A stretch of 38,316 bases of DNA, from IMG/VR virus record IMGVR_UViG_3300017764_000019, positions 1-38,316 of that record. One strand, given 5' to 3'. The notes beneath the pieces were generated by a model. That model worked only from the letters and a program-made list of their open reading frames with translations. It made no database searches and was not told the DNA's origin. Positions 29,348 through 38,316 of this stretch are shown one piece after another. The translations under genes were made by a program, and so were the position numbers. The DNA is from a virus. How positions within the stretch are numbered: position 1 is the first letter of the stretch; the number at the start of each line of letters is the position of its first letter.

Positions 29348-29800
29348 TCAACGCTGCAAGGTCGACACTGTTAGCAAAGCACCCGGGGGCTCAAATAGTT
29401 GGCAGTATCTTTTCTCAGCAATTAGCCGCACCACAAGGCAGTCATCCTTCAAAGCACCGCCCATAACTAGGGCATCAAGAGTGGATCTGCACACTTTATC
29501 AATGTCATTTTTCTTAACGAAGTAATGTTGCGGCGCGTTACTGCGTAGATCGCCGTTAGCGCGGAAGTGTGATTTCGGCCTTTTAAATCTAAAAATTATC
29601 TGCACGTCCACTGGCACGTCAAAGGTTACGAGCCTTTGGTCGCGCATTTGTACTTTTGTTGCGTCAGAGACGGCTTGACGCCAAGGCTTCAATCGCTTGC
29701 ATACCTCCACAAGTCGTCCGCGTCCTACATGTTTTTTGCTGCCTTGTGGCGCAGCTTCAATGTTGAGGACCGAGACGTACAGATTTTGCCGCAGAGACAT
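29348..29800 (-). CDS. rusA: RusA-like Holliday junction resolvase
   Basis: A 150-residue protein: IEAAPQGSKKHVGRGRLVEV (PQGS-K motif), LKPWRQAVSDA, FRFKRPKSHFRANG, and KNDIDKVCRSTLDALVMGGA followed by LKDDCLVVRLIAEKRY. The D-x-DK-x-x-R-x-x-LDAL and (L/V)-x-DD-x-x-V blocks carry the catalytic aspartates of RusA. RusA cuts four-way junctions and works with the exonuclease-annealing pair encoded downstream in the same operon. Its ATG (29798-29800) overlaps the start of a divergent reading frame in a shared CATG. Confidence 0.9.
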   Translation of the reverse strand: MSLRQNLYVSVLNIEAAPQGSKKHVGRGRLVEVCKRLKPWRQAVSDATKVQMRDQRLVTFDVPVDVQIIFRFKRPKSHFRANGDLRSNAPQHYFVKKNDIDKVCRSTLDALVMGGALKDDCLVVRLIAEKRYCQLFEPPGALLTVSTLQR

Positions 29801-30191
29801 GGTGGACTTTGTTAAAGAAAAGCGAGCGTTTGAGATGCTTCAATGGGTGCCATATAGCCTCCCATGTGATTATGATCTGCTTCTTGCGGCTAAAGGTCAT
29901 TATACAAAGCTCCAGACCGAGCGGTCTGACAGAGCATTTGATGAATGTAGCCGTCAAAACGTAGATAAATCAATCTCCGAACTTCAAGCATTTAGAACTC
30001 TCCATGAACTTGGCATCTTTTCAGACGACACACTCTTCTCACCACACAAATCTAAATCCCAATATTACACAACAATCCTCAGAAATCAGCGACTTTCAGC
30101 AGGCTCTTCTCAAGTTAAAGAACCGCGCAGAGCAAATAGTAGGCACAGAGCACGAATCAGACTGGCTTCCATTGATGAGAAATGCGGCTAG
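29799..30191 (+). CDS. Uncertain reading frame upstream of and overlapping the helicase gene
   Basis: From ATG 29799 the frame encodes 130 residues: MVDFVKEKRAFEMLQWVPYS, HYTKLQTERSDRAFDECSRQ, SISELQAFRTLHELGIFSDD look protein-like, but after about residue 90 it becomes Arg/Ser-rich (EPRRANSRHRARIRLA) while the helicase frame looks genuine. It overlaps the helicase by 188 bases, and it contains the leftward promoter candidate. It is either a small gene whose tail is dictated by overlap, the 5' part of a helicase joined by a frameshift, or spurious. Confidence 0.4.
   Translation: MVDFVKEKRAFEMLQWVPYSLPCDYDLLLAAKGHYTKLQTERSDRAFDECSRQNVDKSISELQAFRTLHELGIFSDDTLFSPHKSKSQYYTTILRNQRLSAGSSQVKEPRRANSRHRARIRLASIDEKCG
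29899..29928 (-). promoter_or_regulatory. Candidate operator-promoter for the leftward recombination/sigma operon
   Basis: On the minus strand a perfect TATAAT lies at 29904-29899. Eight bases upstream of it is CAGACCG-AG-CGGTCTG (29913-29928 on the + strand), a perfect 7-bp inverted repeat that covers the -35 position. Predicted transcription would start near 29892, about 90 bases before the RusA-like start. This layout fits a repressor or activator site over a promoter. Confidence 0.5.
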
Positions 30192-31608
30192 TCATTACAA
30201 TGTTGAGCTTGACGTTCGAGATAGTGACCTAAGACAATTTCTGGCCACGGCAAAAGCAAAGGTTGCCCCCGAGGGTGTTGGTAAAAAAATCGGAGACAGG
30301 TTAGATCTTACGCCGATCCCCTGGTCTTGGGAGGGTCTAATTATGAAGGCACGCATGAACCTATTAGTCGCGCAACCCAAGGTAGGTAAGACGGCACTTC
30401 TTCTTGAGATGATCGCCAAATGGCATATGGGAGACAGTGAATTTTTAGGGGCGAACTTTATAGGTGAATGTCCACCAGTTATAATCGTTGGAACTGATCA
30501 AAGTGAGGCCGACTGGGGCTCAATGCTATCGGCGGTTAATTTAGTAAGTAAAGACGGCACTATTTGCAAACCAATCGAGCGTATTTGGACAGCAGCCGAC
30601 CCATTGCATTTCAATGATCGCGGACTTGACGCCTTGGGTGCCGAACTTGAAAATCATGAATCGCCATTGTTGATAGTGGATTCTTACCACAGCTGTGTCG
30701 GCCCTCTAGGGCAAGAAGATAGCGGATCTACATATGCCAATCCGTTGGCGGCGCTGCTCATTGTTGCAGCAAAAGCCCGAGCCACAACTTGTGTAATCCA
30801 CCATGCCAACAAAGGTGTCGGTTCAAATATAGTCTCTTCCTCGCGTGGCACCACAGCCTTGACTGCTGTGCCGTCTCAACTGATTCACATGAGTTTTCTT
30901 GAGACGGAAAACAAAAGGGATAAGCGGATCACCCTTAAAACGCAGGGCCGCTCTGGAACGCCAATGAACCTGTTGATCGAACGAACTGACGCAGGTTGGG
31001 TAAGTCATGGCGATGGTGAGGTTGCGGAGGAAGCTCAAAGACTTCAAGGGGTGGCGAATGAACTAGCTGGAAGGCAGGCCGATTTTTATGATTACATTGA
31101 TATGCGGTGGACTTTAGGTGAATTTGCGGTGAGTAGCAGCGAGCTGGGGCAACACTTTAACCTGACAACCAACAAGATCAGTCGTTACTTGAAACAACTC
31201 GTTACAAAAGGCTTGATCGCCTGCTGTGGTCATACTGAGCCGGGAGTTGATGGTGGTAGGCCGAGCCCTCTGTTCAGACCCTCTCCAGAAACCGGGTTAG
31301 AAACGTTAGAAAGGTTAGAAACCTCCGCTTCTACACACGAAATAAGGAGTTTATCACCTTTATCACCTTTAAAACCTGATATAGCGGAGGAAGGTTTATC
31401 ACCTAAGTCGCCAGTGCAGCGTCTTATGTCCGACAACACCTGGCAATCTGGATGGCTTGTGCGCGATGGCTCCAATCCACACTCCGTCACAATTGAGAAA
31501 GTCGGCAACCCTATGTACGCTGTTCGCAATATGCGTTGGGGAATTGACCTGAAAGTCGCGGATAGCCCCTTTGTGTCAAACGTTAGCGATTCAACAAAAG
31601 AGTTTTAA
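30004..31608 (+). CDS. RepA-like AAA ATPase / replicative helicase with winged helix tail
   Basis: A 534-residue protein. Residues 123-130 (AQPKVGKT) are Walker A; LLIVDSYHS with D226 is Walker B; CVIHHANKG and SSRGTTAL follow as sensor-like motifs, together the RepA/DnaB-like AAA_25 family. About residues 365-405 (ELGQHFNLTTNKISRYLKQL) form a winged helix DNA-binding domain. It is probably the helicase or origin protein starting phage replication with host polymerase, since no phage DNA polymerase is seen. ATG 30004 lacks a Shine-Dalgarno; ATG 30175 is a later alternative. The first ~30 residues look unstructured. Confidence 0.82.
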   Translation: MNLASFQTTHSSHHTNLNPNITQQSSEISDFQQALLKLKNRAEQIVGTEHESDWLPLMRNAASHYNVELDVRDSDLRQFLATAKAKVAPEGVGKKIGDRLDLTPIPWSWEGLIMKARMNLLVAQPKVGKTALLLEMIAKWHMGDSEFLGANFIGECPPVIIVGTDQSEADWGSMLSAVNLVSKDGTICKPIERIWTAADPLHFNDRGLDALGAELENHESPLLIVDSYHSCVGPLGQEDSGSTYANPLAALLIVAAKARATTCVIHHANKGVGSNIVSSSRGTTALTAVPSQLIHMSFLETENKRDKRITLKTQGRSGTPMNLLIERTDAGWVSHGDGEVAEEAQRLQGVANELAGRQADFYDYIDMRWTLGEFAVSSSELGQHFNLTTNKISRYLKQLVTKGLIACCGHTEPGVDGGRPSPLFRPSPETGLETLERLETSASTHEIRSLSPLSPLKPDIAEEGLSPKSPVQRLMSDNTWQSGWLVRDGSNPHSVTIEKVGNPMYAVRNMRWGIDLKVADSPFVSNVSDSTKEF

Positions 31609-31640
31609 TATCGCGTCGACTGACTATTATGTAAAAGTCG

Positions 31641-31683
31641 AGCCTGGGTGATGACAGGCTTGGCCCCTGGAGGAGAGGCCAGG
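31641..31683 (+). ncRNA. Structured segment after the helicase gene: two hairpins
   Basis: AGCCTG (31641-31646) pairs with CAGGCT (31655-31660). CTTGGCC (31659-31665) pairs with GGCCAGG (31677-31683), with one G-T pair, so the two stems share two bases and could exclude each other. With the terminator-like stem that follows this gives a compact structured 3' UTR or small RNA in a 222-base gene-free gap. No known RNA family is recognised. Confidence 0.35.
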
Positions 31684-31695
31684 TGATCGGGGAAA

Positions 31696-31742
31696 AAGTG
31701 GGGGGCCGCGATGCAGTTTTGCTCGTGTCCCCGCTTTTTTTT
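31696..31742 (+). terminator. Probable intrinsic terminator after the helicase gene
   Basis: AAGTGGGG (31696-31703) pairs with CCCCGCTT (31729-31736), allowing one G-T pair, around a 25-base loop, and is followed by a run of eight T (31735-31742). The loop is long but the GC stem and T-run are convincing. Confidence 0.6.
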
Positions 31743-31760
31743 GATAAGATCCGCTTATCA
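31742..31760. promoter_or_regulatory. Operator-like inverted repeat TGATAAG-N5-CTTATCA
   Basis: TGATAAG (31742-31748) and CTTATCA (31754-31760) form a perfect 7-bp dyad with a 5-base spacer. It sits between a terminator and the promoter of the small-gene array, the usual place for a regulator-binding site. The cognate protein is not identified. Confidence 0.45.
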
Positions 31761-31770
31761 TGAAACTTCT

Positions 31771-31799
31771 TTGTATTTGTGATAATAATTTGATATATT
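31771..31799 (+). promoter_or_regulatory. Candidate promoter for the small-gene array
   Basis: TTGTAT (31771-31776), a 17-base spacer and TATATT (31794-31799) resemble a sigma-70 promoter with a weak -35. A start near 31806 would give a leader of about 25 bases before TTG 31831, similar to the leaders described further right. Confidence 0.4.
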
Positions 31800-31830
31800 T
31801 TGTTCTTTTGTTACCATTAGCTGGTCCTGC

Positions 31831-32289
31831 TTGATTCACTTGTTCCTCGACCTTTCACCACAACTTGACGATGATGTTAAATCATTGGCTATCAAATCTG
31901 TATATGCAGATCGAATCAGAGAGAGATCAAAAACCTTTGAATTGCGGACGTACTCGCCAGGCATTCTCCCAGGAAGCTGGTGTGCTTTGTATGAAACAGC
32001 TCCAACAAAGGCGATTCAGACAGTTTTCAAAGCGGGCAGAACATTCAAGCTAACTCCGAATAAGGCATGGGAATTGTACTCTGCAAATTTTGGAATTGAC
32101 TTTGATTCTTACTTTAGTTATTTTAGAAGACGCGCCTGGGCTTACGGAGTTGAGATAGCGGATGTAAGATCTTTTAAGGCCGTCTCGCTTCATGAGTTGA
32201 GAGAATCGCCAGGTTTTACAGTTCCACAAATATGTCAGAAGCTAAAGACTAGGCATCAGAGGATCTTATCAGCCACTGACAAACTATAA
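31831..32289 (+). CDS. ASCH/PUA-like domain protein
   Basis: A 152-residue protein from TTG 31831. The core LAIKSVYADRIRERSKTFEL, RTYSPGILPGSWCALYETAP, TKAIQTVFKAGRTF, ELYSANFGIDFDSYFSYF and AYGVEIADVRSFK follows the ASCH/PUA-like family, with the signature of an (A/I)-x-x-I-x-x-(R/G)-x-K-x-(F/V)-ELR block, a P-(G/L)-x-W-x-x-Y and YFRRRAWAYG. Such domains bind RNA or modified nucleotides and are frequent in phages; some act in transcription control. The conserved region begins near residue 18, so the exact start is uncertain. Confidence 0.75.
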   Translation: MIHLFLDLSPQLDDDVKSLAIKSVYADRIRERSKTFELRTYSPGILPGSWCALYETAPTKAIQTVFKAGRTFKLTPNKAWELYSANFGIDFDSYFSYFRRRAWAYGVEIADVRSFKAVSLHELRESPGFTVPQICQKLKTRHQRILSATDKL

Positions 32290-32297
32290 GAAATTCT

Positions 32298-32372
32298 GAC
32301 TACGACTCACTTTTTTGTGTGTTATCATGCTCTCGTCTGCCGTGCAGACTTTCCTCTATCCCCGATTCTATC
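32298..32372 (+). promoter_or_regulatory. Promoter plus hairpin and CU-rich leader (copy 1)
   Basis: GACTAC at 32298, a -10 TATCAT at 32323-32328 and, 6 bases later, the hairpin GTCTGC-CGT-GCAGAC (32335-32349). The 23 bases between hairpin and ATG are CU-rich and include CCTCTATCCCCGATTCTATC; there is no Shine-Dalgarno sequence. The same arrangement recurs before 34136 and 36215, and in part before 35842. Confidence 0.6.
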
Positions 32373-32855
32373 ATGATTTCAAGACGTGTGCGTCCATCTC
32401 AGGACAGTTTGATTTTTGACAATCTAAAGTTATTGTCACAGGGCGTTCTAGAAAATTTTAAAGACGATTTATTTGTTCATGATCGTGAAATTTTACAGAA
32501 AAAAGTGGAGCCTGGCACTTCATGGCTGTGGATTGTTCACAAAAATGGTACACATCTTGCCCGATGGGATGAAGATGCTTACGCCGGTTCAAAGGACTCA
32601 TTGTTGGAACACTTTGTAAGAAGTCTTGTCAGAGGAGATTGGTCAAATAGTAGTATCCACATTTTTCACGTTAATGAGATCATTGACGGCGAAGCTCATG
32701 GGTGGGTTTCAGGCCGACTTGAGATAGATGATATTGCAAGAGCTTTGCCGCGTCCACTTCCTCAACCTAAGCTGCCTGGCGAAAAGATTGAGCAACAAGT
32801 TTACTCGGCTCACTCTGGTTTAGTTCAGGCTCTTCAGCCGACTTCAGTGGCTTGA
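32373..32855 (+). CDS. Hypothetical protein (160 aa) of the accessory array
   Basis: From ATG 32373 the product starts MISRRVRPSQDSLIFDNLKL and includes TSWLWIVHKNGTHLARWDED, SIHIFHVNEIIDGEAHGWVS and a Pro-rich end (ALPRPLPQPKLPG). The frame is open upstream to 32319, but the CU-rich leader abuts this ATG. I do not recognise the family. The mixed alpha/beta pattern with W-x-W-IV-x-K-x-GTHL suggests a folded domain of about 125 residues and a flexible tail. Confidence 0.65.
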   Translation: MISRRVRPSQDSLIFDNLKLLSQGVLENFKDDLFVHDREILQKKVEPGTSWLWIVHKNGTHLARWDEDAYAGSKDSLLEHFVRSLVRGDWSNSSIHIFHVNEIIDGEAHGWVSGRLEIDDIARALPRPLPQPKLPGEKIEQQVYSAHSGLVQALQPTSVA

Positions 32856-32856
32856 G

Positions 32857-33207
32857 ATGATGAGACACACGATAACTTATTCATTTGACGCCGAATTTGC
32901 CAATGCTTTTTATCATGAGGAAGAAAATTCTTTTGCAGCTAATGACTGTGAAGAAAACTCGGTTATTTTGCACAATATAAATCGCGAAAGAATGATAAGA
33001 CTTGTTCGTAATTGGGTGTGTAACAAGGCGATTCAGTCTGTTAATATGCACGAAAAACCCTGGGAAAGGTCAGAAATGTCCGAGAATGAAATGCGTAATC
33101 TTCATGAAATAAATTCGGCGCTCAATTGTTTCTTGTCGCCACCGCCAGACAAAAGTGAAGTAGTTATCGCGATGCAACAGAAGGAAAAAGGCCGACATAA
33201 GGCATGA
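32857..33207 (+). CDS. Hypothetical protein (116 aa)
   Basis: Begins MMRHTITYSFDAEFANAFYH and is acidic in the first half, with a helical middle (INRERMIRLVRNWVCNKAIQ) and a Lys-rich end. The second methionine at 32860 may be the actual start. It lies one base after the previous stop and overlaps the next start (ATGA at 33204). The family is not recognised. Confidence 0.6.
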   Translation: MMRHTITYSFDAEFANAFYHEEENSFAANDCEENSVILHNINRERMIRLVRNWVCNKAIQSVNMHEKPWERSEMSENEMRNLHEINSALNCFLSPPPDKSEVVIAMQQKEKGRHKA

Positions 33208-33584
33208 CCAGTTCGTATTTTAAAAATCTATTTCCCCGACCAACAACAATGAAAACGAAACTAATTACGGCTCCAGCTTTTCCTTGTCTCGGCGCACTTG
33301 TGTTTTCACGCGGTGTTGCAAGCAGGTCAGAGGCGGACGCAATATTCTGCGATGCTGTCAAATATCGCCAGCAGCTTTTCAGGAACGGTGATTGGGGCGA
33401 TCTTGGTGAGGAGGACTGGGACCAAAATGTCCAAACTTGCAAACAGGCAGATGGCGGTCAATTGCTTGGTATATACAAGCTACCTGATGGATCAAGAATT
33501 TGGATTCTCACAGTTGGTTACGCCAGACAGACGCTCGGCCATGATTATTGTTACACCACGATCCTGTTTCCTGACGAATACTGA
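33204..33584 (+). CDS. Conserved hypothetical protein with DWGDL / IWI motifs
   Basis: A 126-residue protein. GALVFSRGVASRSEADAIFC, NGDWGDLGEEDWDQNVQTCK, GIYKLPDGSRIWILTVGYAR and TTILFPDEY match a small family I have seen on plasmids, integrative elements and phages (GDWGDL-x-x-ED, then KIWIIT, then TT-(I/V)-LFP-x-EY), of unknown function. ATG 33249 (MKTKLITAPAFP) is a possible later start and is preceded by a TTTCCCCGA tract like the CU-rich leaders. ATG 33204 is coupled to the gene before. Confidence 0.7.
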   Translation: MTSSYFKNLFPRPTTMKTKLITAPAFPCLGALVFSRGVASRSEADAIFCDAVKYRQQLFRNGDWGDLGEEDWDQNVQTCKQADGGQLLGIYKLPDGSRIWILTVGYARQTLGHDYCYTTILFPDEY

Positions 33585-33856
33585 TGCCTCGCCACAAAAC
33601 TGCAAACTGGGACGGCTTGACTGAGACTCTCAAGCGAGCTGAAACCTCACAGAATCGACTTTGCCCCTTCTTCACACAACTATGTCACAACAACACAGAT
33701 CGCCCAATTGGTTACACAGAAGAAATATTGGCGAGCAATCTCAACGAAGCGTGCGCAATAGCCGCCAATATTTGGGAAGGCAAGATTCCATCGGGCATAA
33801 GCTACATGGTATGGGGCACTGGTGGAAGCATAAAATTGGTAACGCCGACGCAATGA
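33584..33856 (+). CDS. Hypothetical protein (90 aa)
   Basis: Begins MPRHKTANWDGLTETLKRAE and contains NLNEACAIAANIWEGKIPSG, with a glycine-rich end (VWGTGGSIKLVTPTQ). It starts within the preceding stop (TGATG) and ends in the next start (ATGA), so it is part of a coupled run of four small genes. No family is recognised. A helix with repeated alanines followed by a short beta hairpin is the visible structure. Confidence 0.6.
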   Translation: MPRHKTANWDGLTETLKRAETSQNRLCPFFTQLCHNNTDRPIGYTEEILASNLNEACAIAANIWEGKIPSGISYMVWGTGGSIKLVTPTQ

Positions 33857-34023
33857 AAAAAACAAGCATTTTAACCGATATTGAGATTTCTTCGTTGATT
33901 ATTATGATGGAAGATATCAAGGGCGAGTTTAAGGGCGCTGGTGATTATAAGTTGCCAGAGTTCTATGAGACGATCAGAGTTAAGTTACAAAATATGCATA
34001 AGTCGCGTTATAAAGCTCCATAA
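33853..34023 (+). CDS. Small hypothetical protein (56 aa)
   Basis: From ATG 33853 the product is MKKTSILTDIEISSLIIMME followed by DIKGEFKGAGDYKLPEFYET and a basic helix. The ATG overlaps the previous stop (ATGA). The frame is open upstream inside the previous gene but coding there is unlikely. It is helical and of unknown function, and is the last gene before a terminator. Confidence 0.6.
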   Translation: MKKTSILTDIEISSLIIMMEDIKGEFKGAGDYKLPEFYETIRVKLQNMHKSRYKAP

Positions 34024-34049
34024 ATATCGCTCATGGATGCAATATGTTC

Positions 34050-34075
34050 GACCCCTTGACAAGGGGTCTCTTTTT
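34050..34075 (+). terminator. Terminator hairpin containing a consensus -35
   Basis: GACCCCT (34050-34056) pairs with AGGGGTC (34062-34068) around loop TGACA, followed by TCTTTTT. The dyad GACCCCTTGACAAGGGGTC is perfect. Its centre is also the TTGACA -35 of the next promoter, so termination and initiation signals overlap physically. Confidence 0.7.
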
Positions 34076-34084
34076 ATGTATATT
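34056..34084 (+). promoter_or_regulatory. Consensus sigma-70 promoter for the DUF932 gene
   Basis: TTGACA (34056-34061), a spacer of exactly 17 bases and TATATT (34079-34084). This is the best housekeeping-type promoter in the window. Start is predicted at 34091-34092, exactly where the leader hairpin begins. Confidence 0.75.
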
Positions 34085-34091
34085 TAAAGAG

Positions 34092-34135
34092 TCAATCACA
34101 TCACTGATTGATTCTCTCTCATTCCCCGATTTATC
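34092..34135 (+). promoter_or_regulatory. 5' hairpin and CU-rich leader (copy 2)
   Basis: TCAATCA-CATCAC-TGATTGA (34092-34111) is a perfect 7-bp hairpin starting at the predicted transcript end. The next 24 bases are CU-rich (TTCTCTCTCATTCCCCGATT then TATC) up to ATG 34136, with no Shine-Dalgarno. Confidence 0.6.
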
Positions 34136-35122
34136 ATGGCTTCTGAGTTTACTGATGGCGTAATCATGCAAGGCGAACATGCTTGGCATGGCCTCGGACA
34201 AAATATTGAGGGCACACTCCCCGCAAGGGAAGCATTCACCCGAGCCAATGCACTGTTTACAGTCGAAAAAGCTCCACTGCTATTTCGTAACCCTATCACA
34301 GGTGTTGAGTCGGCCTCTGAGCACAGATGTGCGACTTACAGAACAGACACAGGCGATCAGCTTGGCACTGTTAGCCTCAATTATGAGGTGATTCAGAACG
34401 AGGAGCTCTGTAGGTTTGCGGAGATGCTCCGTGATGACTGTGAGATGGATACGGTGGTCGTACTCAAGGGTGGTGCTAAGGTCGCCTTCTCAGCTAAAAT
34501 CTTGGGAACTGACGCCGAAGTTGTCAAGGGTGACATCATTCATAGGCGACTTAATGGCTATCTGTCACATGATGGGACAACCAGCTTTGGTGGAATGTTC
34601 AGCAATGTCCGCATTGTCTGCAGCAATACACTTGGCTGGGCCATGCAAGATGCTAACAAGCACGGCAAACAATTCAAAATCTCACACACCAAACTCGGCG
34701 TGTCACAGATTGATTCGACTTTGAGGTCTATTGACATTGCTCGCCAGACCTTCACTCAAGAGGTCGAAGATTATAAGCGCATGGCCGAGACAGCTATGGA
34801 TTACAACTCTTATCGGACCTGGCTCACAGACCTTTACAATATGCCGAGCGTCAAACAGCAGGATGGTTCCCTGCGTCCAGGCCAGATAGAGGACTCCAAG
34901 GTTAAGTGGAACAAGCTACGCAATGCATGGGCCGGTGGTTATGGCACATCTATTAATGGTGTGTCCGATACTGTCTGGGGTGCTTTCAATGCTGTTACGG
35001 AAGTAGAAACCAGCTTAAGGGATGCATCAGACAGCAGGAACATCGCCACAGTCAATGGTTACTATGTCCAGCAAATTGTCAACAGGGCCAGGCGCTCTGC
35101 TGCTGAATTGTGTGCAGTATGA
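34136..35122 (+). CDS. DUF932 (phage/plasmid-like) protein
   Basis: A 328-residue protein: MQGEHAWHGLGQNIEGTLPA, SLNYEVIQNEELCRFAEMLR, VVLKGGAKVAFSAKILG, LSHDGTTSFGGMFSNVRIVC and SNTLGWAM are the DUF932/TIGR03299 landmarks (WH-x-LG, V-x-x-x-Y-x-x-(I/V)-QN-x-E, SHDG-(T/S), VCSNTL). The family is widespread on phages and plasmids and its biochemical role is unknown. It has its own strong promoter and leader and is followed by a terminator, so it is a single-gene unit. That suggests high early expression. Confidence 0.9.
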   Translation: MASEFTDGVIMQGEHAWHGLGQNIEGTLPAREAFTRANALFTVEKAPLLFRNPITGVESASEHRCATYRTDTGDQLGTVSLNYEVIQNEELCRFAEMLRDDCEMDTVVVLKGGAKVAFSAKILGTDAEVVKGDIIHRRLNGYLSHDGTTSFGGMFSNVRIVCSNTLGWAMQDANKHGKQFKISHTKLGVSQIDSTLRSIDIARQTFTQEVEDYKRMAETAMDYNSYRTWLTDLYNMPSVKQQDGSLRPGQIEDSKVKWNKLRNAWAGGYGTSINGVSDTVWGAFNAVTEVETSLRDASDSRNIATVNGYYVQQIVNRARRSAAELCAV

Positions 35123-35140
35123 TGGGTCTACCAGCTTCCC

Positions 35141-35164
35141 AGGGGCCGCAAGGCCCTTTTTTTT
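35141..35164 (+). terminator. Terminator after the DUF932 gene
   Basis: AGGGGCC-GCAA-GGCCCTT with a run of eight T (35157-35164). The stem is five GC pairs plus two closing pairs. It lies 22 bases before the next ATG, so the hairpin could also head that gene's leader in read-through transcripts. Confidence 0.85.
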
Positions 35165-35180
35165 ACGCCTTTAACTCGCC

Positions 35181-35351
35181 ATGCCAGCTTTTATTTGTGT
35201 TTATTATGTCTACCAAGATGATGTCAAGTATCGGAGAACAATTCAGATTTACGCCAAAGACTTGGAGCGTGCGGTGGACAAATGGACGAACATAAGAAGG
35301 GAGAATGAGTTCTTAGATGCCATCTTCTTGCCTACTAAGTGGGATCATTGA
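35181..35351 (+). CDS. Small hypothetical protein (56 aa)
   Basis: From ATG 35181 the product is MPAFICVYYVYQDDVKYRRT followed by IQIYAKDLERAVDKWTNIRR and a C-terminus LPTKWDH. It has a clear beta-strand, amphipathic helix, beta-strand pattern and no close competitor frame. The leader is CU-rich (ACGCCTTTAACTCGCC) without Shine-Dalgarno and follows a terminator hairpin at a spacing close to that of the other hairpin leaders. The family is not recognised. Confidence 0.6.
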   Translation: MPAFICVYYVYQDDVKYRRTIQIYAKDLERAVDKWTNIRRENEFLDAIFLPTKWDH

Positions 35352-35441
35352 TTTTTCCCATCAGATTTGCAGCAGGTGCTATGGTGCCTCCTGCATTTAT
35401 TTTGGAAAAAAACGTTTATCGGTTGAGTGGTGGCCTTGGTT
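35348..35441 (+). repeat. Dispersed intergenic repeat, copy 1
   Basis: TTGATTTTTCCCAT, then AGCAGGTGCTATGGTGCCTC and GGAAAAAAACGTTTATCGG (35348-35422) match the segment at 37065-37141. AGTGGTGGCCTTGGTT (35426-35441) is repeated exactly at 37035-37050, on the other side of that copy. The same stretch also opens a 44-codon frame from ATG 35381 (MVPPAFILEKNVYRLSGG), which is not conserved in the other copy. Past the repeat, TTAGCATGCTAA (35504-35515) is a perfect palindrome. Confidence 0.6.
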
Positions 35442-35515
35442 TCCAGGTGTCCAGATTGGACATCATGGTTGCCTGGTGTCCCTGGGAGAATATTTTACCC
35501 AACTTAGCATGCTAA

Positions 35516-35582
35516 AAATTCTTAATGTTCGGCGTAACAAAGCGGACTACAGCGAGACAAAGAATAGCTTATATTAAAAATG
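35516..35582 (+). repeat. Duplicated promoter unit, copy 1
   Basis: This segment aligns without gaps to 36105-36171. The first 40 bases are identical except one (AAATTCTTAATGTTCGGCG, then TAACA-A/C-AGCGGACTACAGCGA), a 13-base block differs, and the -10 region TTATATTAA is conserved. GACTAC lies 25 bases upstream of TATATT (35570-35575). It drives the 62-residue gene at 35603. Confidence 0.75.
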
Positions 35583-35602
35583 TCAAGAAAAGAGGTCAAT
35601 TG

Positions 35603-35791
35603 ATGAATCAATTCAATGTCCCCCTGGTTGCAGATTTCAAGCACTTCCTCGAACTTCCTAACGGACATTTCATTAATATCGATTTAGTGCCTAATGCCAA
35701 TGGGGACTGGGTTGTTGAGCATTTGGATGCTACAGGCGAGTTTGTCTGTGGCATACAGATCGCCGCACCAGAGTCTAAATCCCAAGCCTAA
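35603..35791 (+). CDS. Small hypothetical protein (62 aa)
   Basis: From ATG 35603 the product is MNQFNVPLVADFKHFLELPN, GHFINIDLVPNANGDWVVEH, and a C-terminus GEFVCGIQIAAPESKSQA, a small all-beta pattern. AGAGGT at 35591-35596 is a good Shine-Dalgarno, unlike the leaders of its neighbours. The start codon lies inside AATTGAT-GA-ATCAATT (35598-35613). It is transcribed from the duplicated promoter unit. The family is not recognised. Confidence 0.65.
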   Translation: MNQFNVPLVADFKHFLELPNGHFINIDLVPNANGDWVVEHLDATGEFVCGIQIAAPESKSQA

Positions 35792-35799
35792 TCATTTCA

Positions 35800-35841
35800 G
35801 GGGCCGAGTGGCCCCATCTTTCCTCTTCATCCCCGACTTCT
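35800..35841 (+). promoter_or_regulatory. Hairpin and CU-rich leader (copy 3)
   Basis: GGGGCC-GAGT-GGCCCC (35800-35815) is a perfect 6-bp hairpin. The following 26 bases (ATCTTTCCTCTTCATCCCCG then ACTTCT) are CU-rich up to ATG 35842. No convincing -10 is seen at the expected position, so this copy may act as a processing or partial termination site within a transcript. Confidence 0.55.
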
Positions 35842-36099
35842 ATGAGTATTTCCAAATCTGACATCCGCACTGCACTGACACAATGTGCAAAGGCAGCCGT
35901 TCTAAAGCATGAGCTTGAGGTGAAAGATCTCCCCTTTGATCTGGGCAACGTGGACAATGATGAGAGGCTCCAGGACATAGTTGACTTAATTGATGAGCGT
36001 TTGCGCGATCACATGATCAATTATGTTATCTCTGCAGTTCATCATGGTAATCTTGATTCCACTTATAGCACCCCAGATGAACATAATCAGACCTGGTGA
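35842..36099 (+). CDS. Small acidic protein, paralogue A (85 aa)
   Basis: MSISKSDIRTALTQCAKAAV, then DLPFDLGNVDNDERLQDIVD and LIDERLRDHMINYVISAVHH. It is homologous to the gene at 36215: both share S/I-x-K-x-x-IR-x-(A/C)-L-x-QCA, (D/Q)-LPF-(D/N), and a helix (D/E)-(I/M)-V-x-x-I-(D/E)-E-x-L-x-D-(H/Y)-M. Helical and acidic; the family is unknown. The pair, together with the duplicated promoter between them, indicates a local gene duplication. Confidence 0.65.
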   Translation: MSISKSDIRTALTQCAKAAVLKHELEVKDLPFDLGNVDNDERLQDIVDLIDERLRDHMINYVISAVHHGNLDSTYSTPDEHNQTW

Positions 36100-36104
36100 C
36101 AATT

Positions 36105-36171
36105 AAATTCTTAATGTTCGGCGTAACACAGCGGACTACAGCGAAGTGGGTAATGGTTTATATTAATAATG
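36105..36171 (+). repeat. Duplicated promoter unit, copy 2
   Basis: Second copy of the 35516-35582 unit, same length. The -10 TATATT is at 36159-36164 and GACTAC at 36134. Roughly 57 of 68 positions match, with the differences concentrated in the 13 bases just before the -10. Here the unit feeds a hairpin leader rather than a Shine-Dalgarno leader. Confidence 0.75.
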
Positions 36172-36214
36172 TGATCAATCAGGTCACACAACTTTCCCTC
36201 CACTCTTTTTAATT
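36171..36214 (+). promoter_or_regulatory. 5' hairpin and CU-rich leader (copy 4)
   Basis: GTGATC-AATCA-GGTCAC (36171-36187), with one G-T pair, begins 6 bases after the -10, at the predicted transcript start. The 27 bases to ATG 36215 are CU/A-rich (ACAACTTTCCCTCCACTCTT then TTTAATT) with no Shine-Dalgarno. Confidence 0.55.
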
Positions 36215-36493
36215 ATGATCAACACACCACCCAAGTTCAATCTCTTCCCCGAGCAAGTCAAAAAATCAAAGGTAGATATGACGATCCGCAAGCACACAAT
36301 CCGCGCATGTCTTCGTCAGTGTGCTGAGTCTTATCTTGACTGTGGGGATTACACTCCTGAACAGCTCCCATTCAACCCAGAATATGCAGGTGATTCCCCG
36401 ATCTTCCATGACATGGTTGCGGAGATTGAGGAGCAACTGCATGACTATATGTTGGAGCTTGCCCAAGACATGATCTCCGCTCACTCCAAATGA
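36215..36493 (+). CDS. Small acidic protein, paralogue B (92 aa)
   Basis: MINTPPKFNLFPEQVKKSKV, then MTIRKHTIRACLRQCAESYL, EQLPFNPEYAGDSPIFHDMV and AEIEEQLHDYMLELAQDMIS. It is the paralogue of the gene at 35842 with about 20 extra N-terminal residues. Homology starts at the internal ATG 36278, which has AAAGGT before it and a TCTTCCCCGAG tract further up, so that ATG may be a second start. The stop overlaps the next ATG (ATGA). The function is unknown. Confidence 0.65.
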   Translation: MINTPPKFNLFPEQVKKSKVDMTIRKHTIRACLRQCAESYLDCGDYTPEQLPFNPEYAGDSPIFHDMVAEIEEQLHDYMLELAQDMISAHSK

Positions 36494-36651
36494 TCTACAC
36501 CACTCTCCGCCTTGATTACGTCGAACTTATTGCCTTGAGTGACTCCATTCAAGCAGTCTTTCCAGAGAATTTAAGTGATCAGGAAAATGCAGTTCTTGAT
36601 CGCCTCAGCAAACGCATCAGTAAGGCACTGTATCGCCTGGAGGCTAAATGA
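36490..36651 (+). CDS. Small helical protein (53 aa)
   Basis: The frame encodes MIYTTLRLDYVELIALSDSI followed by QAVFPENLSDQENAVLDRLS and a helical basic end (KRISKALYRLEAK). ATGA overlaps link it to the genes on both sides (36490 and 36648), so it belongs to a three-gene coupled unit. It is too short for confident family assignment. Heptad-like spacing of Leu/Ile suggests helices. Confidence 0.6.
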   Translation: MIYTTLRLDYVELIALSDSIQAVFPENLSDQENAVLDRLSKRISKALYRLEAK

Positions 36652-36809
36652 CTATTTCTGTTAACTGGTTTATGGTTCCCTTCGGTCCTATGACTAAAAA
36701 AGATTGGGACTATAAAATGTGGGAAATTGAGACTATGTCCTACATGCCTGATTACATTACTGAGGAGGAGGATGACTTTATGAGTTATTCATCCATTGAT
36801 GTTATCTAG
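36648..36809 (+). CDS. Small acidic protein (53 aa)
   Basis: The frame encodes MTISVNWFMVPFGPMTKKDW, then DYKMWEIETMSYMPDYITEE and an acidic end. Met and aromatic residues are frequent (Trp 3, Met 7). It is coupled to the preceding gene by ATGA. The family is unknown. A strongly acidic small protein in an early array could be a host-protein inhibitor or DNA mimic, but nothing in the sequence shows this. Confidence 0.6.
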   Translation: MTISVNWFMVPFGPMTKKDWDYKMWEIETMSYMPDYITEEEDDFMSYSSIDVI

Positions 36810-36868
36810 TAATCATCAAGGACGCAGGATGGCGTGATGCCAACGTAGCTGCAATAAATCGGAGATAT

Positions 36869-36942
36869 ATGCAAGAAAAAAACATCTTCTCGCCAAGATT
36901 TCAACCTTGCAAGCGGAGCTTGACAAGTCAACTAATAACTGA
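36869..36942 (+). CDS. Possible micro-gene with -1 slippery A-AAA-AAC
   Basis: ATG 36869 follows GGAG (36861-36864). In zero frame it encodes a 32-residue peptide of no clear character, running into the terminator. A -1 shift at A-AAA-AAC (36877-36883) gives MQEKKHLLAKISTLQAELDK and a short end, stopping at 36940-36942, a good coiled-coil helix. The upstream sequence in the zero frame (KDAGWRDANVAAINRRY) also looks coding but has no start codon, so a decayed or frame-disrupted gene is equally possible. Confidence 0.3.
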
Positions 36943-36957
36943 AACTTCACAAAATTA

Positions 36958-36984
36958 CTCAGGGTAACATCCCTGGGTTTTTTT
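36958..36984 (+). terminator. Intrinsic terminator at end of the small-gene array
   Basis: CTCAGGG (36958-36964), loop TAACAT, CCCTGGG (36971-36977) and seven T (36978-36984). The stem is seven pairs including one T-G. It separates the array from the ParB/ABC genes. Confidence 0.85.
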
Positions 36985-37034
36985 GCGCTTTGCACCAGGT
37001 GGGTCATTATGTCCGCGCTGGACCTTTTTGCTCC

Positions 37035-37141
37035 AGTGGTGGCCTTGGTTCTTAGGCTCGAACATTGATTTTTTTCATAAAAAGGCTCAGGAGGTGCTAT
37101 GCTACCTGCGTGCAAATAACATGAAAAAAACAGGTATTCGG
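37035..37141 (+). repeat. Dispersed intergenic repeat, copy 2
   Basis: AGTGGTGGCCTTGGTT (37035-37050) is an exact match to 35426-35441. TTGATTTTTTTCAT, then AGGAGGTGCTATGCTACCTG and GAAAAAAACAGGTATTCGG (37065-37141) match the unit at 35348. The two blocks occur in the opposite order here, so they are separate mobile or recombining units rather than one long duplication. Confidence 0.6.
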
Positions 37142-37151
37142 CACTTGCACC

Positions 37152-37157
37152 TATAAT
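37152..37157 (+). promoter_or_regulatory. TATAAT -10 box before the ParB-like gene
   Basis: A perfect -10 hexamer 27 bases before ATG 37185. No -35 is recognisable 17 bases upstream (AACAGG), so activation or an alternative sigma would be needed. It is a fair candidate for the ParB/ABC/packaging transcript. Confidence 0.45.
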
Positions 37158-37184
37158 GATCGAGTTATTGCAGCAAAAACGCAA

Positions 37185-37763
37185 ATGAGCGGCACAGGTG
37201 ACACTGTTCAATCGCTTTCATCTCTCAAATCAGACCATAAAAACGCGAGAAAACGCACACTTCAGGGGAAAAACCTTATTCAAGAGTCGCTCAGTCGTTA
37301 CGGTGCAGCGCGATCTATTGTGATTGATGAATCCAATCGCGTACTAGCAGGGAACGGCACAATTGAGGCCGCAGCCGCGACAGGCATTGATCGAGTCCGC
37401 ATTATAGAGACCGATGGCGACGAAATTATTGCAGTACGTCGCACTGGACTAACGGAAGAGTCGAAAGTCGGTTTGGCTTTGGCCGATAACAGGACCTCTG
37501 AGCTGGCCGAGTGGGACAAAGAAATGCTGTCGACTTTATCATCTGAGCATAAAATCGACCCATGGTTTGATGATGATACTTTGCTCGCGCTTCTTGCAGA
37601 AGATGAGCCAGACTTTGATGACAGTGAAGTCGCCAATGATCAGCTAGATAAAATCGAAGCAGTTTTTCAGATCATTGTCAATTGTCGAAATGAAGAAGAA
37701 CAAACGGCGACTCTTGATTATTTGTTGGGTCAAGGGTTGGACTGCAAAGCTATGAATGCATAA
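37185..37763 (+). CDS. ParB/Srx-fold protein of the phage packaging-region type
   Basis: A 192-residue protein. YGAARSIVIDESNRVLAGNG with TIEAAAATGI is the ParB/sulfiredoxin-like core; GNG (56-58) matches its phosphate-binding turn. IAVRRTGLTEESKVGLALAD followed by NRTSELAEWD is the usual continuation. The C-terminus (AVFQIIVNCRNEEEQTATLD, then YLLGQGLDCKAM) is a small alpha-beta add-on that occurs in phage members of this family. In phages such genes lie beside terminase and an ABC ATPase, as here. Nucleotide-dependent or DNA-modification-related roles are proposed for relatives. No ParA partner is present. Confidence 0.85.
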   Translation: MSGTGDTVQSLSSLKSDHKNARKRTLQGKNLIQESLSRYGAARSIVIDESNRVLAGNGTIEAAAATGIDRVRIIETDGDEIIAVRRTGLTEESKVGLALADNRTSELAEWDKEMLSTLSSEHKIDPWFDDDTLLALLAEDEPDFDDSEVANDQLDKIEAVFQIIVNCRNEEEQTATLDYLLGQGLDCKAMNA

Positions 37764-37765
37764 TT

Positions 37766-38316
37766 ATGGCGCACCTTAAATTTTCAAAGTCCTCTGAGAT
37801 TAAAAGGACTGCAAGAGTCGCGCAATTAGAAGGTCTTTTCGACATCGCGCCATCACCAAGGTCGACTGTATCTTATGATATAGATCTGCCGATTGACACT
37901 TTTGACTGGAATATTGGTTTAATTGTCGGCCCGAGTGGTTGTGGCAAAACGAGCATTGCGAGTGAATTATTTGGCGAAAATTTTAATCGCCAGTTTACAT
38001 GGGAACACGACAAAACAATTGTGGATTGTTTTCCAAAAAATATGGCGATTAAAGATATTACGTCAACTTTGTCGTCAGTTGGTTTTAGCTCACCACCTAA
38101 TTGGTTGCGGCCCTATCATGTGCTGTCAAATGGCGAGCAATTTAGGGTCGATATTGCTAGAGGGTTGGCCGAGTCGCCAGACTTGCTAGTTGTTGACGAA
38201 TTTACGTCAGTTGTTGATCGCACTGTCGCGAAAATTGGTAGTGCGGCTATAGCAAAAGCAGTGAGGCGGCGCAAGCAAAAATTCGTAGGAGTCGCTTGTC
38301 ACTATGACATTCTTGA
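37766..38316 (+). CDS. Phage ABC-type ATPase (3' end outside window)
   Basis: Open from ATG 37766 to the window edge (183 residues visible). ABC motifs are complete: Walker A GPSGCGKT (55-62), signature LSNGE (120-124), Walker B LLVVDE (140-145), D-loop SVVD (148-151) and H-loop His179 in ACHYD. There are no membrane segments. I recall full-length relatives as soluble ABC ATPases with a C-terminal GNAT (Mom-like) acetyltransferase domain; that half would lie outside the window. It follows the ParB-like gene by 2 bases, pointing to a joint function, perhaps DNA modification. Confidence 0.85.
   Translation, partial: MAHLKFSKSSEIKRTARVAQLEGLFDIAPSPRSTVSYDIDLPIDTFDWNIGLIVGPSGCGKTSIASELFGENFNRQFTWEHDKTIVDCFPKNMAIKDITSTLSSVGFSSPPNWLRPYHVLSNGEQFRVDIARGLAESPDLLVVDEFTSVVDRTVAKIGSAAIAKAVRRRKQKFVGVACHYDIL

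What the first reader, a model, noticed from the sequence alone, without database searches (positions are those of the whole stretch)
32298..36217. Recurring 5' hairpin plus CU-rich, Shine-Dalgarno-free leader in front of small accessory genes
Four genes (starts 32373, 34136, 35842, 36215) share one layout: a perfect or near-perfect 6-7 bp hairpin, then 23, 24, 26 or 27 CU-rich bases directly abutting ATG, with no purine-rich ribosome site. Three leaders contain TCCCCGA(T/C)T. The hairpins differ completely in sequence (GTCTGC/GCAGAC, TCAATCA/TGATTGA, GGGGCC/GGCCCC, GTGATC/GGTCAC) but keep shape and spacing, which suggests selection on RNA structure. In three cases a -10 box ends 6-7 bases before the hairpin, so the transcript would begin with the stem. 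Such 5'-terminal stems are known to protect mRNA from 5'-end-dependent RNase E decay, and CU-rich leaders can be bound by ribosomal protein S1. A dedicated early-gene expression cassette is my inference.
Basis: partly seen in the sequence, partly recalled or inferred. Interest (0 to 1): 0.78.

Follow-up and report, generated by a model that had tools for sequence, protein, structure and literature searches.

The report
Phage mRNA 5' hairpin and start-codon leader
A group of uncultured viruses of ocean photosynthetic bacteria starts several of its messenger RNAs with a small hairpin, placed exactly at the predicted first base and followed by a short G-poor leader carrying CCCGA just before the start codon; this conserved but undescribed element probably protects those messages and helps ribosomes start without the usual signal.

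Summary
The window is a cyanosiphovirus (IMG/VR) whose nearest cultured kin are KBS-S-2A, S-H1, S-CBS1 and S-CBS3. Related uncultured phages carry the same layout on orthologous genes. The DUF932 gene's leader keeps its stem through compensatory changes (all nine pairs; 92% of cells paired; covariation 1.07 versus 0.33 shuffled). The stem begins exactly 6 nt after a -10 box in 20 of 24 elements, so it should be the first thing transcribed. A CCCGA motif sits 3-9 nt before most of these ATGs (26 versus 0.5 expected in these phages; 0 in 525 kb of host DNA). Nothing matches in Rfam, and six cultured cyanosiphoviruses lack the element.

Corrections: the hairpin at 35800 has no promoter and looks like a terminator. 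The 36215 leader lacks CCCGA, and its start codon is uncertain. Missing Shine-Dalgarno sites are common elsewhere in this phage. Two promoter classes carry the element, and early timing is not shown.

Best reading: a 5'-terminal protective hairpin (ompA/T7-like) joined to an unstructured, Shine-Dalgarno-free ribosome landing site. Structure and position are shown by comparison; protection and translation are inferred. The role of CCCGA is open.

The parts
32323..32328 (+). -10 box TATCAT (with TG one base upstream, extended -10) of gene R
   Evidence: exactly 6 nt before the stem
32335..32349 (+). 5' hairpin GTCTGC-CGT-GCAGAC, predicted to start at +1
   Evidence: orthologous genes in L003, L006, L007, L020, L022, L024 also have a +1 hairpin
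32350..32372 (+). G-poor, C/T-rich leader with TCCCCGA at 32359-32365
32373..32855 (+). gene R, 160 aa, no family match; orthologs at 41-61% identity carry the element
34050..34068 (+). terminator-like hairpin that contains the -35 TTGACA (34056-34061) of the DUF932 promoter
   Evidence: same arrangement in L003, L006 and L020
34079..34084 (+). -10 box TATATT, 17 nt after TTGACA
   Evidence: 11 of 12 consensus bases
34091..34112 (+). 5' hairpin GTCAATCA-CATCAC-TGATTGAT, predicted to start at +1
   Evidence: covariation in 10 orthologs
34113..34135 (+). G-poor leader with TCCCCGA at 34123-34129
   Evidence: CCCGA invariant in 10 orthologs
34136..35122 (+). gene D, DUF932 / phage-plasmid-like protein TIGR03299 (function unknown)
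35800..35815 (+). hairpin GGGGCC-GAGT-GGCCCC; no promoter before it, terminator-like
   Evidence: comparable terminator-like hairpins before CCCGA leaders in L009, L020, L024
35816..35841 (+). G-poor leader with TCCCCGA at 35830-35836
35842..36099 (+). gene S1, 85 aa; the L006 relative sits directly behind promoter plus +1 hairpin
36133..36164 (+). promoter GGACTACA-N18-TATATT (second promoter class)
36171..36187 (+). 5' hairpin GTGATC-AATCA-GGTCAC, predicted to start at +1
36188..36214 (+). C/T-rich leader without G or CCCGA; a TCCCCGA lies at 36246-36252 before the alternative start 36278
36215..36493 (+). gene S2, similar by eye to S1; start may be ATG 36278, where its similarity to S1 begins

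Best explanation
It is a recurrent 5'-leader module of one lineage of picocyanobacterial siphoviruses. A promoter places transcription start (+1 = G) on the first base of a 5-9 bp hairpin. The paired 5' end hinders pyrophosphate removal and 5'-end-dependent attack by RNase E/J. After it comes a 17-30 nt G-poor, unstructured leader, so the ribosome can load without Shine-Dalgarno pairing, probably with ribosomal protein S1; CCCGA at the usual Shine-Dalgarno distance helps in a way not yet known. Shown by comparison: hairpin, covariation, +1 geometry, CCCGA conservation. Inferred: mRNA protection, S1 loading, role of CCCGA.
For: Covariation on DUF932 leaders: all 9 pairs changed on both sides, 92% of cells paired, score 1.07 versus 0.33 shuffled and at most 0.22 when slid. 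Stem starts exactly 6 nt after the -10 in 20 of 24. 22 of 23 genes have a +1 hairpin versus 2.5 expected. The hairpin occurs behind two different promoter types, TTGACA-17-TATATT and GGACTACA-N18-TATATT, which points to an RNA role. Leaders hold 0-2 G. CCCGA before starts: 26 versus 0.5 expected. In L022 the gene equivalent to L020 T lies behind the S-type promoter and hairpin. Literature: host RNase E rises in cyanophage-infected Prochlorococcus (PMC9692554); a 5'-terminal stem-loop can stabilise mRNA in E. coli (Emory 1992, title in the reference list) and B. subtilis RppH needs at least two unpaired 5' bases (PMC3997798); cyanobacterial rbcS initiation needs S1 but not SD (cited in PMC6847405).
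Against: No RNA data: the +1 sites are predicted. 35842 and the L009, L020 and L024 T genes have terminator-type hairpins without a promoter, so the element is not always 5'-terminal. The L010 S gene has a gap of 4, and the group B DUF932 stems begin 4 nt after the -10. A pure protection model does not need CCCGA, and host DNA shows no use of that motif (0 in 525 kb), so a host S1 mechanism does not explain it.
Confidence: 0.55

Rival explanations
1. Translational control site: hairpin plus CCCGA is bound by a phage-encoded RNA-binding protein (as T4 RegA or gp43 bind near start codons, from memory), which represses or activates this gene set together.
For: CCCGA is invariant in 10 DUF932 leaders while the linker drifts and is specific to this phage lineage, absent before starts in host DNA. 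Many loops share TCAC.
Against: Stem sequence is free and the TCAC loop is missing in window R, S2 and several S elements. No candidate binding protein was identified.
Confidence: 0.25
2. DNA operator: the inverted repeats just downstream of the -10 are repressor sites rather than RNA hairpins.
For: The position overlapping +1 is typical of operators.
Against: Repeat sequences differ between genes of one genome, so one repressor cannot read them all. Stems keep pairing through G.U pairs (7 cells), which breaks a DNA palindrome.
Confidence: 0.05
3. Terminator remnants: the hairpins only end upstream transcripts, and the leaders are incidental.
For: True in form for 35800-35815 and for the T genes of L009, L020 and L024, whose hairpins are terminator-like, with a T-run in L020 and L024.
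Against: The other stems lack T-runs and sit exactly 6 nt after a -10 box; the DUF932 gene has a separate terminator-like hairpin further upstream (34050-34068).
Confidence: 0.07
4. Shared ancestry only: one leader was copied to several genes and the similarity is not functional.
For: Leaders within a genome resemble each other, and some promoters are near-identical copies (40 nt, 98%).
Against: Stems have diverged completely with pairing kept, which needs selection.
Confidence: 0.05

Closest known systems
5'-terminal stabilising stem-loops (E. coli ompA and papA; T7 gene 10 leader, the last from memory)
   Same: Stem at or next to the mRNA 5' end, followed by a single-stranded leader to the start codon.
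   Different: Those leaders have a Shine-Dalgarno site (from memory); here there is CCCGA instead, and the module is repeated at several genes with freely varying stems. Stabilisation has not been tested here.
Start-associated sequences (SAS/ESAS) of Cluster K mycobacteriophages (PMC3203893)
   Same: A short conserved motif next to start codons of a subset of non-structural phage genes, about half with an inverted repeat upstream; function unknown.
   Different: SAS is GGGATAGGAGCCC with a purine-rich core; its 17-bp repeats share a consensus sequence, whereas these stems do not. No homology.
SD-independent, S1-dependent initiation of cyanobacterial rbcS mRNA (Mutsuda and Sugiura 2006, cited in PMC6847405)
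   Same: Translation start without Shine-Dalgarno pairing.
   Different: No 5' hairpin or CCCGA motif was described there as far as I know; host loci examined here show no CCCGA before starts.

Membership tests
5'-terminal protective stem-loop (ompA/T7 type) | base-paired stem at the extreme 5' end of the transcript | tested here: met
   Predicted only: stem starts 6 nt after the -10 in 20 of 24 elements; not met for 35842
5'-terminal protective stem-loop (ompA/T7 type) | stem kept by selection | tested here: met
   Compensatory changes at all 9 pairs
5'-terminal protective stem-loop (ompA/T7 type) | lengthens mRNA half-life through the RppH/RNase E route | not testable with these tools
   Needs RNA half-life measurements
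Cluster K SAS/ESAS | 13-bp GGGATAGGAGCCC next to the start codon | tested here: not met
   Leaders hold CCCGA and 0-2 G; motif definition
Cluster K SAS/ESAS | inverted repeats with a shared consensus sequence | tested here: not met
   Stem sequences differ between genes and genomes
Known Rfam cis-regulatory families | match at the curated gathering score | tested here: not met
   No such match in window 29800-38316 or in L003, L015, L028, L010, L020, L024
Intrinsic terminator | GC-rich stem followed by a T-run | tested here: inconclusive
   35800-35815 scored terminator-like with a weak T tail; 32335-32349 only marginally; the 34091 and 36171 stems were not reported
Shine-Dalgarno leader | pairing of the leader with the 16S 3' end | tested here: not met
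   Duplex energy -1.8 to +0.2 kcal/mol for 32373, 34136, 35842, 36215; complement TCGGG of the motif is not in the 16S 3' tail

The most novel reading that the evidence does not exclude
CCCGA at Shine-Dalgarno distance, coupled to a hairpin at +1, is a phage-specific replacement for the Shine-Dalgarno signal, read by a phage-encoded factor or by an unrecognised ribosome or initiator-tRNA contact (CCCGA equals the 3' strand of the initiator-tRNA anticodon stem; one 5-mer, so possibly chance). It would mark this gene set for selective translation during infection.
Probability: 0.25. Interest if true: 0.82.

Novelty: new variant of a known kind. Interest (0 to 1): 0.6.

Why it matters
Cyanophages infect the most abundant photosynthetic cells on Earth, and host RNase E rises during infection of Prochlorococcus (PMC9692554). 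How phage messages survive is an open question; a hairpin built onto base +1 would be a simple answer and can be tested in a reporter. The CCCGA motif may be a translation start signal without Shine-Dalgarno pairing, a question of wider interest in cyanobacteria and plastids.

Tried and rejected
DNA operator and simple terminator readings: rejected for the promoter-linked stems. Rfam: nothing. Cultured relatives KBS-S-2A, S-H1, P-HS2, MED4-117, S-CBS1, S-CBS3: no element by motif scan, inspection of upstream regions or model search, each applied to some of them. Pairing of CCCGA with the 16S 3' tail: none; TCGGG occurs four times elsewhere in 16S, not informative. Scan of viral contigs for GGACTACA-N16-20-TATATT gave mostly chance matches. 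The covariance model from DUF932 leaders is too small to find most other elements. MAFFT could not align the stems; I padded loops and linkers with N by hand to fix the register (failed in 41, worked in 51), so depends on that hand alignment, and its slid controls are the fairer check. L006 ATG 1000 first looked like an element but its CCCGA is coding. Larger phages with DUF932 (L103-L106, L108) have a different upstream hairpin, without CCCGA in a leader. DUF932 homologs were not found in bacterial genomes by the scan.

Full report
What the window is. The window is a 38,316-base IMG/VR virus record with siphovirus structural genes (Mu-F-like head protein, Gp13-like capsid, tape measure, tail), a phage sigma-70 factor and a Rad52-like protein. 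Its head protein is 57% identical to Cyanophage KBS-S-2A and 56% to Synechococcus phage S-H1; its AAA_25 protein at 30004 is 56% identical to that of S-CBS1 and 37% to the S-CBS3 RepA; its sigma factor is closest to picocyanobacterial sigmas. It is therefore a cyanosiphovirus; the host is inferred.

The observation. All four hairpins, leader lengths and motifs are present as described. A -10 box lies exactly 6 nt before the stem for 32373, 34136 and 36215. 35842 has no promoter; its hairpin GGGGCC-GAGT-GGCCCC resembles the terminator at 35141 (75% over 24 nt).

Relatives. Using the DUF932 protein (34136), the ParB-like protein (37185) and the 160-aa protein R (32373), about a dozen related contigs were found. 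They form three groups: A (window, L003, L006/L018, L015, L005), B (L007/L008, L009/L028, L010) and C (L020-L025). Orthologous genes carry the same layout with different stems: for R, GTCTGC/GCAGAC in A and GTCAGT/ACTGAC in B and C; for DUF932, GTCAATCA/TGATTGAT, GTCAGTTG/CGACTGAC, GGGTGAATG/CATTCACCC, GTGGAC/GTCCGC.

Covariation. On ten DUF932 leaders, set in register by hand with N padding, all nine pairs show changes on both sides, 92% of cells are paired, and the covariation score is 1.07 against 0.33 in shuffles and 0.06-0.22 with slid partners. G.U pairs are tolerated (7 cells), which favours RNA over a DNA palindrome.

Position. For 24 promoter-linked elements a -10-like hexamer lies exactly 6 nt before the stem in 20, so by the usual geometry stem base 1 is +1. 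Some stems were trimmed by hand to the GT at +1; the window DUF932 stem could extend 2 bp further out. One of the 24 (L006 ATG 1000) was later judged spurious. Two promoter classes are used: TTGACA-17-TATATT for DUF932 and GGACTACA-N18-TATATT for the S genes. For 23 genes from three families, picked mainly by homology, 22 have a hairpin at +1 to +3 against 2.5 expected; mean folding z is -3.1.

Leader. CCCGA is invariant in DUF932 leaders, 3-9 nt before ATG in the elements that carry it. Leaders hold 0-2 G in 17-38 nt. In these phages [AT]CCCGA[CT]..ATG starts number 26 against 0.5 expected; in 525 kb of picocyanobacterial and other cyanobacterial DNA 0 against 2.6; in six cultured cyanosiphoviruses 2 against 1.05. 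The motif is thus special to this lineage. It does not pair with the 16S 3' tail. Other genes of the window often lack a Shine-Dalgarno site too.

Mechanism. The best-supported reading is a 5'-terminal protective stem plus an unstructured, Shine-Dalgarno-free landing site. RppH and RNase E/J prefer unpaired 5' ends (B. subtilis RppH in PMC3997798; the rest established knowledge); cyanophage infection raises host RNase E in Prochlorococcus, where phage transcripts are thought to be shielded by antisense RNA (PMC9692554); rbcS initiation in cyanobacteria needs S1 but not Shine-Dalgarno (cited in PMC6847405). These are analogies. The lineage-specific CCCGA is not explained by host S1 alone and may point to a phage factor.

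Known kinds. Rfam has no match. The nearest described phage analogue is SAS/ESAS of Cluster K mycobacteriophages (PMC3203893), which fails on sequence and on the conserved repeat. I file this as a new variant of 5'-terminal stem leaders.

Noticed in passing
window 35516-35583 and 36105-36172: A 40-nt block (98% identical) containing GGACTACA, 18 nt before TATATT, is repeated. GGACTACA-N18-TATATT recurs in groups A-C and stands where a -35 box would be; possibly the promoter of the phage's own sigma factor. One copy drives a gene with a Shine-Dalgarno site and no hairpin (ATG 35603).
   Followed up: partly
window 34050-34068: The -35 box TTGACA of the DUF932 promoter lies inside a terminator-like hairpin (GACCCCTTGACAAGGGGTC); the arrangement is kept with changed stems in L003, L006 and L020.
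   Followed up: partly
window 31831-32289: A conserved ORF of about 150 aa in groups A-C has no ATG at its conserved start; it probably begins at TTG or GTG before TTC-CTC, with a very short leader.
   Followed up: partly
L022 9168 compared with L020 8911-9168: In L022 the gene equivalent to L020 T lies directly behind an S-type promoter and hairpin; the S gene seems to be missing there.
   Followed up: partly
L103-L106 and L108, upstream of the DUF932 gene (ATG 7983): Larger phages with a DUF932 homologue have a different conserved hairpin (TCAGGC..GCC[C/T]GA) about 20 nt before ATG, without a CCCGA leader or an obvious promoter.
   Followed up: no
window 35370-35389 and 37088-37107: Another promoter-like repeat (CAG[C/G]AGGTGCTATG) with conserved flanks, before short genes.
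   Followed up: no
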